From positions 434,001 through 498,000 of the forward strand of contig NZ_VIGX01000001.1 in NCBI RefSeq assembly GCF_007858475.1: 64,000 nucleotides of DNA, given 5' to 3'. This DNA is from Tsukamurella conjunctivitidis (GTDB lineage Bacteria; Actinomycetota; Actinomycetes; Mycobacteriales; Mycobacteriaceae). Under the pieces are notes generated by a model. It searched no databases. It was not told the origin of the DNA and saw only the letters and a program-made list of their open reading frames with translations. Made by a program: the position numbers and the translations under genes. Below, in pieces: positions 15,110 to 22,062 of the stretch (the stretch's first letter is position 1; each line of letters starts with the position of its first letter).

Positions 15110-16279
15110 TCAGCGGGCGAACGCGGCGCGAACGGATTCCTCCGTCAGTCCGTAGTCCTCGAGGGAGTAGGTGTGGTTGGGGCGCCGGGCTCCCGAGCGA
15201 CTGGTGTCGTGCATCGCCGACATCGACCGCCGCGCATCGTCGGTCAGCTCCAGGCCGAAGGAGTCGTAGATCGTTCCGACGGTGCCGAGCGGATCGGCCA
15301 CCAGGTCCCGGTAGTCCACGTCCACGAACTGCGCGCCGCGGCCCGCGGCGGTGTGCCGGGCACGGGCCTCGTCGAAGGCGGCCAGGCCGCGCGACCACGT
15401 GTCCAGCTGGTCCGCGCCGATCGTCGCGCCGGTGAAGGCCGTCGACCAGCCCTGCGTGGCGTGCTGCGCGAGCGAGCACACGGAGGCGATGATCGTCTCC
15501 GCCGGGCGGTGGCACTGCACGATCAGTGCGTCCGGGTACACCTCGAGTACCGCGTCGAGCGCGAAGAGGTGGCTCGGGTTCTTGAGCACCCAGCGTTTGC
15601 CGGGATCGTTCATGCCGATCAGCTGCAGGTTCCGCTTGTGCCGGCGGTACGCGGGCGTCCAGTCCTGCTCGGCGAGCCACGCGGCGTACGACGGGACGTG
15701 CGCGAGGCACTCGTACGAGACCGAGTGCACGGACTGGCGCAGCAGCTGCCAGCACTCCTCCACCTCGGAGGCCGACATGTAGTGCAGCCCCATGAATTCC
15801 GGGTGCTCGGTGTGGTGCTGCGCGTACTGCTCATCGAGCAGTTTGTAGACGGGGTTCGCGTCCCAGGTCTCGCGGGGCGGCCGCGGCTGCGGGACCTCCG
15901 CCAGCCACATCTGCAGGCCCTGGTTGCCGGGATCGGCGTCGAGCAGGCGGTGCAGCGCCGTCGTGCCGGACCGGGGGAGTCCCGTGACGAACATCGGCCG
16001 CTCGATTGCGGTCTCGGCGTGGGCCGGGTTCGCCGCGAACGCGGCCTCGCTGATGAGCCGGGCCGAGAGGGCGCCGCGGAGGAAGACGCGCGAGAGCTTC
16101 GAGCCGAGCTCGGTGAGCGCCGCCTCCTCTCGGTAGGAGTCGAGCAGGACCTGCAGGGCCTCGCGGTACCCGTCCGACGGGTCGCCGAAGTCGCTGAGGC
16201 CGGTGCGCCGCATGGCCGATTCGTGGAGGTCGTCGGCTGTTCCGACCCGGGTGCCGGCGACCGTGTCGCGTTCAGACAT
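15110..16279 (-). CDS. PAPS-dependent sulfotransferase (Sulfotransfer_3 type, Rv3529c-like)
   Basis: A 389-residue cytosolic sulfotransferase. The 5'-phosphosulfate loop reads FVTGLPRSGTTALHRLL, and the 3'-phosphate segment is near IVQCHRPAETIIASVCSL. It should transfer sulfate from PAPS to a hydroxyl group of an unknown acceptor. The start ATG 16279 overlaps the SDR stop by eight bases. An upstream in-frame extension is a shadow. With the SDR and DUF1214-type genes it forms a three-gene operon resembling Rv3531c-Rv3530c-Rv3529c (from memory), and PAPS synthesis genes lie 3 kb away. Confidence 0.88.
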   Translation of the reverse strand: MSERDTVAGTRVGTADDLHESAMRRTGLSDFGDPSDGYREALQVLLDSYREEAALTELGSKLSRVFLRGALSARLISEAAFAANPAHAETAIERPMFVTGLPRSGTTALHRLLDADPGNQGLQMWLAEVPQPRPPRETWDANPVYKLLDEQYAQHHTEHPEFMGLHYMSASEVEECWQLLRQSVHSVSYECLAHVPSYAAWLAEQDWTPAYRRHKRNLQLIGMNDPGKRWVLKNPSHLFALDAVLEVYPDALIVQCHRPAETIIASVCSLAQHATQGWSTAFTGATIGADQLDTWSRGLAAFDEARARHTAAGRGAQFVDVDYRDLVADPLGTVGTIYDSFGLELTDDARRSMSAMHDTSRSGARRPNHTYSLEDYGLTEESVRAAFAR

Positions 16280-17051
16280 GGAACTCTCCGCAGTTGACGT
16301 CGAGCGTCTGGCCGGTGATGCCGGACGCGCGGGGGGAGGCGAGGAAGAGGACGGCCGAGGCCACCTCGTCCTCGGTGGGCAGGCGCCGCAGGTCCGAGTT
16401 CTTCGCCGCATCGGCGTAGTCCTCCTCGACCGTGACGCCCTTGGTGCTCGCGCGGTACTCGAAGTAGGCCTTGAGCGTGTCGCCCCAGATCCAGCCCGGC
16501 ACCACGGAATTGATCCGGATACCCTCCGGTCCGAGCTCGGTGGCGAGTGATTGCGCCAGCGCGAGCTGCGCGGTCTTACCGGCCTTGTAGCCGCCGTACC
16601 GCAGGTCGGAGTGGCGGATCACCATCGAGTTCACGTTGACCACGGCGCCGCCACCGTCCGCGGCCGCGAGCGCCTCGCGGAAGGCGAGCACGGTGCGCAG
16701 GGCGCCGAGGGCCATGAGGTCGACGCTCTGCAGGATGTGGGCGGGGTCGGTCTTCGCCAAGCGCTGCATCGACGGGTAGGTGAAGGCGTTGTTGATCACC
16801 GCGTCGACCCGGCCGAATCGCTCCTGCACCTGTGTCGCCAGCGAGGCGAGCGACGCCTCGTCGGTGATGTCCGCGGGAATCGCGACGGCACCGTTGATCT
16901 CGGCGGCCATCGCCTCCAGTCGTTCCGCGCTCCGCGCGACGAGGACGACCTGCGCGGCCTCGTCGGCGAACCGTCGGGCGAGGACGGCTCCCAGGGCCGG
17001 GCCGGCCCCCGCGATGACGACGACCCTGCCGTCCAGTCCCAGACCGGGCAT
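16272..17051 (-). CDS. Short-chain dehydrogenase/reductase (Rv3530c-like)
   Basis: A 259-residue classical SDR. The cofactor motif is altered to AGAGPALG from the usual TGxxxGIG. It has VINNA, the catalytic segment with NSMV and YGGYKAGKTA as the Tyr-Lys pair, and VVPGW. It probably oxidises or reduces an alcohol/ketone on a lipid or steroid-like substrate (inference from the operon). ATG 17051 sits in a TGATG overlap with the upstream gene, and its stop overlaps the sulfotransferase start. The open frame continues upstream only as a shadow. Confidence 0.88.
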   Translation of the reverse strand: MPGLGLDGRVVVIAGAGPALGAVLARRFADEAAQVVLVARSAERLEAMAAEINGAVAIPADITDEASLASLATQVQERFGRVDAVINNAFTYPSMQRLAKTDPAHILQSVDLMALGALRTVLAFREALAAADGGGAVVNVNSMVIRHSDLRYGGYKAGKTAQLALAQSLATELGPEGIRINSVVPGWIWGDTLKAYFEYRASTKGVTVEEDYADAAKNSDLRRLPTEDEVASAVLFLASPRASGITGQTLDVNCGEFHV

Positions 17052-20230: not shown

Positions 20231-22062
20231 TGGAGATCCTGCGCATCGCGACGGCCGGCAGTGTGGACGACGGCAAGTCCACGCTCATCGGGCGCCTGCT
20301 CTACGAATCGAAGTCCGTCCTGGAGGACCAGCTGAGCGCGGTCGCCGCGACCACCGCGGCCCGCGGCGAGGAGGGCGTGGACCTCGCGCTGCTCACCGAC
20401 GGCCTGCGGGCCGAGCGGGAGCAGGGCATCACGATCGACGTGGCCCACCGCTACTTCGCCACGGCCACCCGCAAGTTCATCCTCGCCGACACCCCCGGGC
20501 ACGAGCAGTACACCCGCAACATGGTCACCGGGGCCTCCACGGCCGACGTCGCGCTGATCCTCGTCGACGCCCGGCACGGGCTCACCCGGCAGTCCCGCCG
20601 GCACACCTTCCTCACCTCGCTCCTCGGCGTCGAGCACATCGTGCTGTGCGTGAACAAGATGGACCTGGTCGGCTTCGACCGCGCCCGGTTCGACGCCATC
20701 CGCGCCGAGTTCGCGGAGTTCGCGGCCAAGCTCGAGGTGCACGACGTGGAGGCCATCCCGGTCTCGGCGCTGTTGGGCGACAACGTGACCGAGCGCTCGG
20801 CGAACACCCCGTGGTACGACGGCCCGTCGCTGCTCTACCACCTGGAGAACGTGCACGTGGTGAGCGACAAGAACCTCATCGACGCCCGCCTGCCCGTGCA
20901 GTACGTGATCCGGCCGCGGGACAGCGACTTCCGGGGCGTGGCCGGCACCGTCGCCTCCGGGGCGTTCGCGGTGGGCGACGAGGTGGTCGCGCTCCCGTCG
21001 GGCTTCACCACGACGGTGGCCGAGCTCTACCGGCCCGGCGGCGCGAAGGCCGACCGGCTGGAGGCGGGGGAGGCCGCGTGCATCAGGCTCGCCGACCACC
21101 TCGACGTGGGCCGGGGCGACGTGCTGTGCCGCCCCGCGAACCGCCCGCAGTCCGCGACCGATCTCGACACCACGCTGTGCTGGTTCTCGGACACCGCCGT
21201 ACTGACCCCCGGCGCCGAGTACCGGATGCTGCATGCGCACACCTCCGAGCCGGTGCGGGTCGAGGCGCTGGACTACCGGCTGGACACCAGCACGCTGCAC
21301 CGCGACCAGGACGCCGCCGAGCTCGGCCTCAACGACATCGGCCGGGTGCGGCTGACTGCGCGCCGGCCCGTGCTGTTCGACCCCTACCGCCGCAACCGCA
21401 CCACGGGCAGCTTCGTGCTGGTGCACCCGCAGACCAACGAGACCGTCGCCGCGGGGATGATCACCGGCCCCACGCTGCGCTCGAGCGCGGTGGTCTGGCA
21501 CGGCGCGGCGGTCCGGCGCGAGGACCGCGCGACGCGCGGCGGCACCGTCTGGCTGACGGGGCTCTCGGCGTCGGGCAAGTCGACGGTGGCGTGCGAGCTC
21601 GAGCGCCTGCTCGTGGCCCGCGGCGTGCCCGCGTACCGGCTCGACGGCGACAACCTGCGACACGGCCTCAACGCCGACCTCGGCTTCACGCCGGAGGACC
21701 GCGCCGAGAACGTGCGCCGCGTCGGTGCCGTCGCGCAGCTGCTCGCCGACGCGGGGACGGTGGCGATCGCCTCGCTGATCAGCCCCTACCGCGAGGACCG
21801 CGACCGGATCCGGGCCCAGCACGAGGAGGCGGGGCTGCCCTTCCTCGAGGTCTTCGTGGACACCCCCGTCGAGCTGTGCGAACAGCGCGATCCGAAGGGG
21901 ATGTACGCCAAGGCGAGGGCCGGTGAGATCCCCGGGTTCACGGGCGTCAGCGCACCCTACGAGGCGCCCGAGCGCCCCGAGCTGGTGCTCCGGCCCGCCG
22001 ACGGCGAACCCGCGGAGCAGGCGCTTGCGGTGCTCGACCGCTGGCTGAAACTCGGGCCGTGA
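20230..22062 (+). CDS. cysNC: Fused sulfate adenylyltransferase subunit 1 / APS kinase
   Basis: A 610-residue bifunctional enzyme. Residues 1-430 are the CysN GTPase with G1 AGSVDDGKST, DTPGHEQY and NKMD, plus EF-Tu-like beta domains. From about residue 435 there is an APS kinase with P-loop GLSASGKST, DGDNLRHGLNADLGF and SLISPYREDRDRIR. Together with CysD it converts sulfate to PAPS, the donor used by sulfotransferases. ATG 20230 overlaps the cysD stop. The presence of the kinase domain and the shared promoter layout tie it to the sulfotransferase operon. Confidence 0.95.
   Translation: MEILRIATAGSVDDGKSTLIGRLLYESKSVLEDQLSAVAATTAARGEEGVDLALLTDGLRAEREQGITIDVAHRYFATATRKFILADTPGHEQYTRNMVTGASTADVALILVDARHGLTRQSRRHTFLTSLLGVEHIVLCVNKMDLVGFDRARFDAIRAEFAEFAAKLEVHDVEAIPVSALLGDNVTERSANTPWYDGPSLLYHLENVHVVSDKNLIDARLPVQYVIRPRDSDFRGVAGTVASGAFAVGDEVVALPSGFTTTVAELYRPGGAKADRLEAGEAACIRLADHLDVGRGDVLCRPANRPQSATDLDTTLCWFSDTAVLTPGAEYRMLHAHTSEPVRVEALDYRLDTSTLHRDQDAAELGLNDIGRVRLTARRPVLFDPYRRNRTTGSFVLVHPQTNETVAAGMITGPTLRSSAVVWHGAAVRREDRATRGGTVWLTGLSASGKSTVACELERLLVARGVPAYRLDGDNLRHGLNADLGFTPEDRAENVRRVGAVAQLLADAGTVAIASLISPYREDRDRIRAQHEEAGLPFLEVFVDTPVELCEQRDPKGMYAKARAGEIPGFTGVSAPYEAPERPELVLRPADGEPAEQALAVLDRWLKLGP

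What the first reader, a model, noticed from the sequence alone, without database searches (positions are those of the whole stretch)
15110..22062. A co-regulated sulfation locus: sulfotransferase operon plus its own PAPS synthesis genes
A sulfotransferase with clear PAPS-binding loops is encoded with an SDR and a DUF1214-type protein, divergent from an IclR gene, and cysD-cysNC (sulfate to PAPS) follow. No cysH, sulfite reductase or sulfate permease adjoins them, so the PAPS appears to feed sulfonation rather than cysteine synthesis. Both operons share promoter layout (separate finding). The three-gene block resembles Rv3531c-Rv3530c-Rv3529c, whose product is unknown to me. This may be an undescribed pathway making a sulfated lipid, steroid or quinone.
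Basis: partly seen in the sequence, partly recalled or inferred. Interest (0 to 1): 0.85.

Follow-up and report, generated by a model that had tools for sequence, protein, structure and literature searches.

The report
Sulfation module of bacterial sterol breakdown
These genes look like a self-contained sulfate-attaching kit that carries sites for the cell's cholesterol-breakdown regulator, and in some relatives they sit in the same operon as steroid ring-opening enzymes, so a sulfotransferase of unknown role can now be tested as part of sterol metabolism.

Summary
In detail: in this Tsukamurella genome a DUF1214-SDR-sulfotransferase operon lies divergent from an IclR gene, followed by cysD-cysNC. 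An assimilatory cluster with a kinase-less cysN lies elsewhere, and the genome has only two APS kinases, this one and one beside a second sulfotransferase. Of 147 relatives with listed rows, 107 keep cysD within 10 kb of the sulfotransferase.

Both promoters carry sites for KstR, the cholesterol-catabolism repressor (exact before DUF1214, one mismatch before cysD; exact before cysD in 24 of 68 linked loci). Both carry a second palindrome, found only twice in this genome, that tracks the IclR gene. In five other genera the block continues the hsaA-hsaC-hsaB steroid-ring operon. All 154 sulfotransferase genomes (of 201) have HsaC; none of the 38 without HsaC has it.

Best reading: a KstR- and IclR-controlled, PAPS-making sulfonation module of sterol catabolism, probably acting on a steroid intermediate. 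Substrate, binding and expression are inferred. KstR control of the M. tuberculosis orthologue Rv3531c was known; I found no report of the PAPS link, the second operator or the hsaACB fusion.

The parts
15110..16279 (-). PAPS-dependent sulfotransferase (Sulfotransfer_3), ATG at 16279
16272..17051 (-). short-chain dehydrogenase (PRK07890-type), ATG at 17051
17051..18217 (-). DUF1214-like protein, first gene of the sulfotransferase operon
18233..18248 (.). GGTACAAATGTGGACC, proposed IclR operator 1
18256..18269 (.). TAGAACCTGTTCCA, exact KstR motif TnnAACnnGTTnnA
18310..19230 (+). IclR-family regulator, divergent from the sulfotransferase operon
19236..19265 (+). TTGACA-N18-TAATCT promoter-like pair of cysD
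   Evidence: sequence
19248..19261 (.). AAGAACACGTTCTA, KstR-like site (one mismatch) filling the spacer and touching the -10 of cysD
19289..19304 (.). GGTCCAAATATGAACC, proposed IclR operator 2, in the cysD leader
19313..20230 (+). cysD, ATP sulfurylase small subunit; start revised from 19277
20230..22062 (+). cysNC, ATP sulfurylase GTPase subunit fused to APS kinase (makes PAPS)

Best explanation
The locus is a sulfonation module of the sterol-catabolic regulon. CysD and CysNC turn sulfate into PAPS (family knowledge). The sulfotransferase passes the sulfuryl group to a hydroxyl of a steroid breakdown intermediate, perhaps one prepared by the SDR; the role of the DUF1214 protein is unknown. 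KstR represses both operons until sterol-derived CoA thioesters appear (ligand recalled), and the neighbouring IclR protein adds a second, locus-specific control through two GGTnCAnnnnTGnACC operators. Shown from sequence: gene content, separate assimilatory cluster, conserved linkage, KstR-like and second sites, hsaACB fusion in other genera, nested co-occurrence with HsaC. Inferred: operator binding, expression on sterols, the substrate and the purpose. My preferred purpose is a safety valve that sulfonates surplus ring-opened steroid phenol or catechol.
For: Separate assimilation: sulfite reductase-cysH-cysD-cysN (426 aa, no kinase) with an ABC sulfate permease close by on C278 (named by eye beyond PF01507). 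CysH carries CCNLRK, SIGCQPC and KTECGLH, like the APS-reductase signatures quoted in PMC8557817 (passages). The APS-kinase search counts 2 in this genome (one row listed, here; the other is taken to be the cysNC on C221 seen). Linkage: cysD within 10 kb of the sulfotransferase in 107 of 147 genomes, 15 of 21 genera, on opposite or on the same strand. KstR motif: 94 exact sites in 90 loci (1.30 Mb): 55 within 200 bp upstream of DUF1214 (53 of 80 loci), 25 upstream of cysD (24 of 68 linked, 0 of 9 counted as unlinked), 14 elsewhere; five control palindromes gave 0 in these promoters and 0-11 elsewhere. Kendall 2007 lists the Rv3531c site as experimentally positive (passages); the printed site itself departs from the core at one outer base (A to T), the same kind of departure as the cysD site here. 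Second palindrome: 46 of 55 DUF1214 and 33 of 48 cysD promoters with the IclR gene, 0 of 25 and 0 of 29 without it, 2 elsewhere; exactly 2 in the own genome, both here. hsaA-hsaC-hsaB directly before DUF1214 in 10 of 10 stretches from g4, g9, g11, g13, g19, 9 of 10 with an exact KstR site before hsaA; HsaA, HsaB, HsaC over NCBIfam cut-offs in L093; named Gordonia loci L159 and L181 show the same. Sulfotransferase within 6 kb of HsaC in 29 of 29 genomes of g9, g11, g13, g19. Sulfotransferase implies HsaC in 154 of 154 and KstR (E up to 1e-30) in 154 of 154 genomes. A CysQ-like gene follows cysNC directly in many genera, e.g. 6 of 6 loci in each of g10, g11, g24, g28.
Against: In Tsukamurella the cysD site departs from the KstR consensus at one fixed base (12 of 13 loci; L054 shows three mismatches, probably because its alignment edge covers the site). 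In g9, g11, g13, g19 the cysD promoter has neither motif. Linkage is missing in g30 (0 of 14) and g4 (0 of 9), and 69 of 80 named loci, nearly all Mycobacterium-type, show no cysD within the up to 9 kb held. Outside g9, g11, g13, g19 the sulfotransferase is within 6 kb of HsaC in 0 of 108 genomes counted, own genus included (g4 enters with one genome only). Nine HsaC-bearing genomes lack the sulfotransferase at E 1e-90, so it is not needed for ring cleavage. The SDR is not detected at the threshold used in 9 of 80 DUF1214-bearing loci. A CysQ-like gene is absent behind cysNC in Tsukamurella (0 of 13) and g23 (0 of 6), and follows cysNC also where that is unlinked (g30, 4 of 4). The second palindrome is missing before DUF1214 in 9 of 55 IclR-bearing loci, g30 among them (0 of 4). 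In other genomes the bare pattern also occurs elsewhere (1-12 sites against 1-8 for the reversed control in 16 genomes). Counts are not independent of phylogeny. No expression, binding or metabolite data were available.
Confidence: 0.72

Rival explanations
1. The module is sterol-regulated but makes a sulfated envelope or quinone-like molecule from sterol-derived building blocks, not a sulfated steroid.
For: Mycobacterial Stf3 is described as making sulfomenaquinone (PMC6469627 passage); Stf0 makes a sulfated trehalose (recalled). In Tsukamurella and the Rhodococcus genus g24 the block is not beside hsaACB.
Against: In five genera it is in the hsaACB operon itself, and in the 201 genomes searched it never occurs without HsaC.
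Confidence: 0.2
2. The sulfotransferase does not release a product but uses sulfate as a leaving group so that a steroid hydroxyl can be eliminated with the SDR or DUF1214 partner; the module is then a catabolic step.
For: The recurring trio with an SDR and an uncharacterised partner; sulfonation-driven elimination is known elsewhere (recalled).
Against: Nine HsaC-bearing genomes do without it; the SDR is not detected in 9 of 80 loci.
Confidence: 0.12
3. cysD-cysNC is general sulfate-assimilation capacity and its position is accidental.
For: Adjacent to purL, a housekeeping gene; cysDNC is stress-responsive in M. tuberculosis (PMC3141025 passages); 40 of 147 genomes lack the link in the listed rows.
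Against: An assimilatory cluster exists elsewhere, linkage survives rearrangement in 15 genera, and in this genome the second palindrome is confined to the two promoters.
Confidence: 0.04

Closest known systems
Rv3531c-Rv3530c-Rv3529c of M. tuberculosis, KstR regulon (Kendall 2007, PMC1995591; passages read)
   Same: The three genes are listed among cholesterol-catabolic genes in PMC6429209 (passages). Sulfotransferase residues 12-388 align with solved chain 2zq5 at E 3.6e-172 (that 2zq5 is Rv3529c/Stf1 is recalled).
   Different: No adjoining cysD-cysNC in the four g30 loci read; no function given in the passages read.
Stf0 locus (sulfatase, cysNC, cysD, stf0) of Rhodococcus qingshengii IGTS8 (PMC8557817, passages)
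   Same: A sulfotransferase next to its own cysD-cysNC; a similar cluster exists in this genome on C221.
   Different: Another kind of sulfotransferase (only 25.4 bits to Sulfotransfer_3 on C221), TetR neighbour, sulfatase present; KstR or HsaC link not examined there.
hsaACB steroid ring-cleavage operon (HsaC: PMC2652662, abstract and passages)
   Same: In g4, g9, g11, g13, g19 the DUF1214-(SDR)-sulfotransferase genes continue this operon.
   Different: In this genome the block is about 275 kb from hsaC.
Gut Bacteroides cholesterol sulfotransferase (recalled, not searched)
   Same: Bacterial sulfonation of a sterol.
   Different: Distant organism; not known to me to be tied to sterol catabolism or KstR.

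Membership tests
PAPS-dependent sulfotransferase (Sulfotransfer_3) | Curated Pfam score and 5'-phosphosulfate loop | tested here: met
   198.8 bits, cut-off 27; PR.GTT invariant in all 16 aligned; loop function recalled
PAPS-dependent sulfotransferase (Sulfotransfer_3) | Sulfonates an acceptor in vitro | not testable with these tools
   needs enzyme assay
Sulfate-activating complex CysD-CysNC | CysD, CysN and APS-kinase domains over cut-off | tested here: met
   CysD 441.8 (396.6), CysN 522.6 (336.1), apsK 222.1 (138.7) bits
KstR regulon | KstR present in genome | tested here: met
   NF033703 E 6.4e-92
KstR regulon | Exact TnnAACnnGTTnnA before the sulfotransferase operon | tested here: met
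   18256-18269; 13 of 13 Tsukamurella loci
KstR regulon | Exact TnnAACnnGTTnnA before cysD | tested here: not met
   AAGAACACGTTCTA, one mismatch here; exact in 24 of 68 linked loci, all of other genera
KstR regulon | Binding and derepression by sterols | not testable with these tools
   needs EMSA, RNA-seq
DUF1214 (PF06742) | Pfam gathering score | tested here: inconclusive
   19.2 bits against 25; 15 of 16 members match at E up to 1; fold nearest 6ans, then VPA0106 and VPA0735
Assimilatory sulfate reduction locus | cysH, sulfite reductase or permease alongside | tested here: not met
   these lie on C278

The most novel reading that the evidence does not exclude
A bacterial counterpart of steroid phase-II conjugation: the sulfotransferase caps the phenolic or catecholic ring-opened steroids (3-HSA, DHSA) that HsaAB and HsaC handle, using PAPS from its own KstR-controlled synthesis genes, while the IclR protein senses the aromatic steroid. 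Sulfonation would protect the cell from catechol toxicity during sterol growth and would give M. tuberculosis Stf1 its role.
Probability: 0.3. Interest if true: 0.9.

Novelty: new variant of a known kind. Interest (0 to 1): 0.75.

Why it matters
Cholesterol catabolism is central to mycobacterial biology, and one KstR-regulated sulfotransferase there has no assigned role in the passages I could read. Finding its genes in the hsaACB operon of several genera, with a linked PAPS supply and an operator pair of their own in others, turns 'unknown sulfated product' into a short list of steroid substrates that can be tested in soil strains. Cholesterol costs an hsaC mutant its viability, consistent with catechol toxicity (PMC2652662, abstract), so a conjugation route would be a new layer of sterol metabolism.

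Tried and rejected
Considered and rejected or weakened: accidental adjacency of cysD-cysNC; a role in cysteine synthesis; CysQ as a universal part (0 of 13 Tsukamurella and 0 of 6 g23 loci); the sulfotransferase as a needed step of ring cleavage (9 HsaC genomes lack it). Rfam and tRNA scans of the window found nothing. A search of 296 genomes of the phylum gave 11 with a match at E 1e-60; 4 lie outside the family, at 36-40% identity; not followed. Solved structures did not reveal a function for the DUF1214 protein.

KstR with sulfotransferase gave 3 papers (one opened; two seen as listing only). For any two of KstR, cysD, cysN, cysNC, sulfate adenylyltransferase 408 papers qualified and 20 were listed; only one of the 20 held KstR, and its passages state no KstR-cysD link. 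DUF1214 with steroid gave 0. Papers opened were seen as passages; PMC4881515, PMC3068626 and PMC6498646 had no passage with my terms. Most subscription papers are not held, so 'not in print' is not shown.

Limits of the counts: match tables are capped, so 147 of the 154 sulfotransferase genomes and only the best cysD rows entered, and absence of linkage there can be a capped row. The 90 loci are a selection spread over genera: 69 of 70 chosen linked stretches (G090 was left out), plus 21 stretches from genomes without listed linkage. L090 counts as unlinked only because its DUF1214 gene fell below threshold. One 'elsewhere' site (L054) is a cysD-promoter site at an alignment edge. The second palindrome was noticed in the window and in promoters printed before it was counted. 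The window line printed nothing because the script picked the wrong record; one search gives the right result. Seven of the ten genomes had already given an earlier locus.
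Full report
THE LOCUS. On the minus strand lie a DUF1214-like gene, an SDR gene and a PAPS-dependent sulfotransferase (18217 to 15110), with overlapping ends; on the plus strand an IclR gene, then cysD and cysNC (to 22062), the last two again overlapping. purL follows, and a dicarboxylate transporter with its sensor kinase precedes; neither looks related. The nearest solved relative of the sulfotransferase is 2zq5 (E 3.6e-172), then 2z6v (4.3e-38); the SDR is nearest 3ucx, then hydroxysteroid dehydrogenases and other SDRs; the DUF1214 protein models well (pLDDT 86) and folds like 6ans (TM 0.78), a protein of unknown function.

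The genome (5.07 Mb) has four PF01507 genes, three of them cysD. The assimilatory set, sulfite reductase-cysH-cysD-cysN with an ABC sulfate permease close by, is on contig C278 (names by eye). Its CysN (426 aa) lacks the kinase domain, and its CysH has the cysteine signatures of APS reductases quoted in PMC8557817. So cysteine synthesis need not pass through PAPS. The APS-kinase search counts two in the genome: the one here, and one that I take to be the cysNC of a second cluster on C221, with a sulfatase, an FGE-like gene, cysD and a Stf0-like sulfotransferase (Stf0-like by eye and by the similar IGTS8 cluster in PMC8557817).

CONSERVED LINKAGE. The sulfotransferase occurs at E 1e-90 in 154 of 201 genomes drawn from the family. 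Of 147 genomes with a listed row, 107 in 15 of 21 genera have a listed cysD within 10 kb, on opposite strands at about 3 kb in some genera, on the same strand mostly at 3-12 kb (up to 20 kb) in others. It is absent in g30 (0 of 14) and g4 (0 of 9). Of 80 named loci, 11 hold cysD: 7 Tsukamurella, 2 Mycobacteroides, Rhodococcus marinonascens and Gordonia araii; the other 69, nearly all Mycobacterium-type, show none in the flank held. The two Mycobacteroides loci (L149, L150) keep the complete divergent layout. APS kinase occurs in 153 of the 154 sulfotransferase genomes (the exception is 66% complete) and in 12 of the 47 others. In 48 of the 85 sulfotransferase genomes with a single APS kinase, a cysD lies within 10 kb of the sulfotransferase.

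THE REGULATOR. The KstR motif TnnAACnnGTTnnA (PMC1995591) occurs exactly once in the window, before the DUF1214 operon; of three one-mismatch sites one lies before cysD, inside a TTGACA-N18-TAATCT promoter, and only it keeps the fuller AGAACnnGTTCTA core. A stricter form of the motif has 13 sites in the genome against 0 for the reversed control, several beside sterol-type genes judged by eye, others not; KstR itself is present. In 90 selected loci (1.30 Mb) there are 94 exact sites: 55 before DUF1214 (53 of 80 loci), 25 before cysD, 14 elsewhere; five control palindromes gave none in these promoters and 0, 2, 1, 11 and 8 elsewhere. Exact cysD sites occur in 24 of 68 linked loci, all in g6, g10, g22, g24, g28, and in 0 of 9 counted as unlinked. 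In Tsukamurella the cysD site has one mismatch in 12 of 13 loci. The Rv3531c site printed in PMC1995591 and listed there as positive also departs from the core at one outer base.

A SECOND OPERATOR. GGTnCAnnnnTGnACC stands in both promoters. With the IclR gene (over 40% identity) present it is found before DUF1214 in 46 of 55 loci and before cysD in 33 of 48; without it in 0 of 25 and 0 of 29; 2 lie elsewhere. In this genome it occurs exactly twice, both here, though the reversed control pattern also occurs twice; in 16 genomes the bare pattern has 1-12 sites against 1-8 for the control. The g30 loci carry the IclR gene without the palindrome (0 of 4). I propose it is the IclR protein's operator; binding is untested.

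THE PATHWAY. In g9, g11, g13 and g19 the sulfotransferase is within 6 kb of HsaC in 29 of 29 genomes with both rows listed; in the other genera 0 of 108. HsaB lies directly before DUF1214 in 3 of 3 g4, 4 of 5 g9, 6 of 6 g11, 1 of 1 g13 and 4 of 4 g19 DUF1214-bearing loci, and in two named Gordonia loci. Ten stretches from ten genomes of these five genera all show hsaA-hsaC-hsaB-DUF1214 in one direction, followed by the SDR (not detected in the g4 stretch) and, in the nine that reach it, the sulfotransferase; 9 of 10 have an exact KstR site between hsaA and a divergent KshA-like gene (KshA by eye). HsaA, HsaB and HsaC of L093 exceed the NCBIfam equivalog cut-offs. Family-wide the sulfotransferase is nested within HsaC: 154 with both, 0 with sulfotransferase only, 9 with HsaC only, 38 with neither; for KstR 154, 0, 10, 37. 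Phylogeny inflates such counts. A CysQ-like gene (88.8 bits, below its cut-off 228.8) follows cysNC in many genera, fitting removal of PAP, but not in Tsukamurella or g23, and it does so in g30 too, where cysNC is unlinked.

MECHANISM. Sulfate to PAPS by CysD-CysNC and transfer by the sulfotransferase follow from family knowledge. That the acceptor is a steroid intermediate is inferred from regulation, operon fusion and nesting. An hsaC mutant loses viability on cholesterol, consistent with catechol toxicity (PMC2652662, abstract and passages), which makes a conjugating safety valve plausible; a 17-hydroxysteroid made by the SDR is an alternative acceptor. Neither was tested.

NOVELTY. Known: KstR control of the Rv3531c promoter (PMC1995591), Rv3529c-Rv3531c listed among cholesterol-catabolic genes (PMC6429209), four sulfotransferases stf0-stf3 in M. 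tuberculosis (PMC3141025), and a PAPS-supplied Stf0 cluster in Rhodococcus (PMC8557817), all seen as passages. I found no paper tying the block to PAPS synthesis, the second palindrome or hsaACB within searches, whose lists were capped.

Noticed in passing
L007:6267-12339 (contig C221): A second PAPS locus, named by eye: sulfatase, FGE-like protein, cysNC, cysD, Stf0-like sulfotransferase, with a TetR gene beyond; similar to the IGTS8 cluster in PMC8557817.
   Followed up: partly
L008:10993-12270 (contig C278): The assimilatory CysN lacks the APS-kinase domain, so PAPS synthesis appears confined to the two sulfotransferase loci.
   Followed up: yes
L149, L150: Mycobacteroides keeps the full divergent layout, whereas other Mycobacterium-type named loci keep only (IclR-)DUF1214-SDR-sulfotransferase; the PAPS genes were probably lost from the locus there.
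   Followed up: partly
L070, L085, L093 between sulfotransferase and cysD: An enoyl-CoA hydratase and three acyl-CoA dehydrogenase genes sit between the two operons in g9, g13, g19 (L093 by NCBIfam, pimC- and IpdE2-like below cut-offs; the others by eye).
   Followed up: partly
L092, L093, L095, L104: A different, more distant IclR-family gene (29-33% identity) lies beside cysD in loci without the main IclR gene and without its palindrome.
   Followed up: no
L080:5769-7241: An EmrB-type efflux gene follows the sulfotransferase in this g11 locus; it could export a sulfated product.
   Followed up: no
window 11846-14838: DcuS-type sensor kinase next to a DctA-type transporter; looks like ordinary C4-dicarboxylate uptake.
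   Followed up: no
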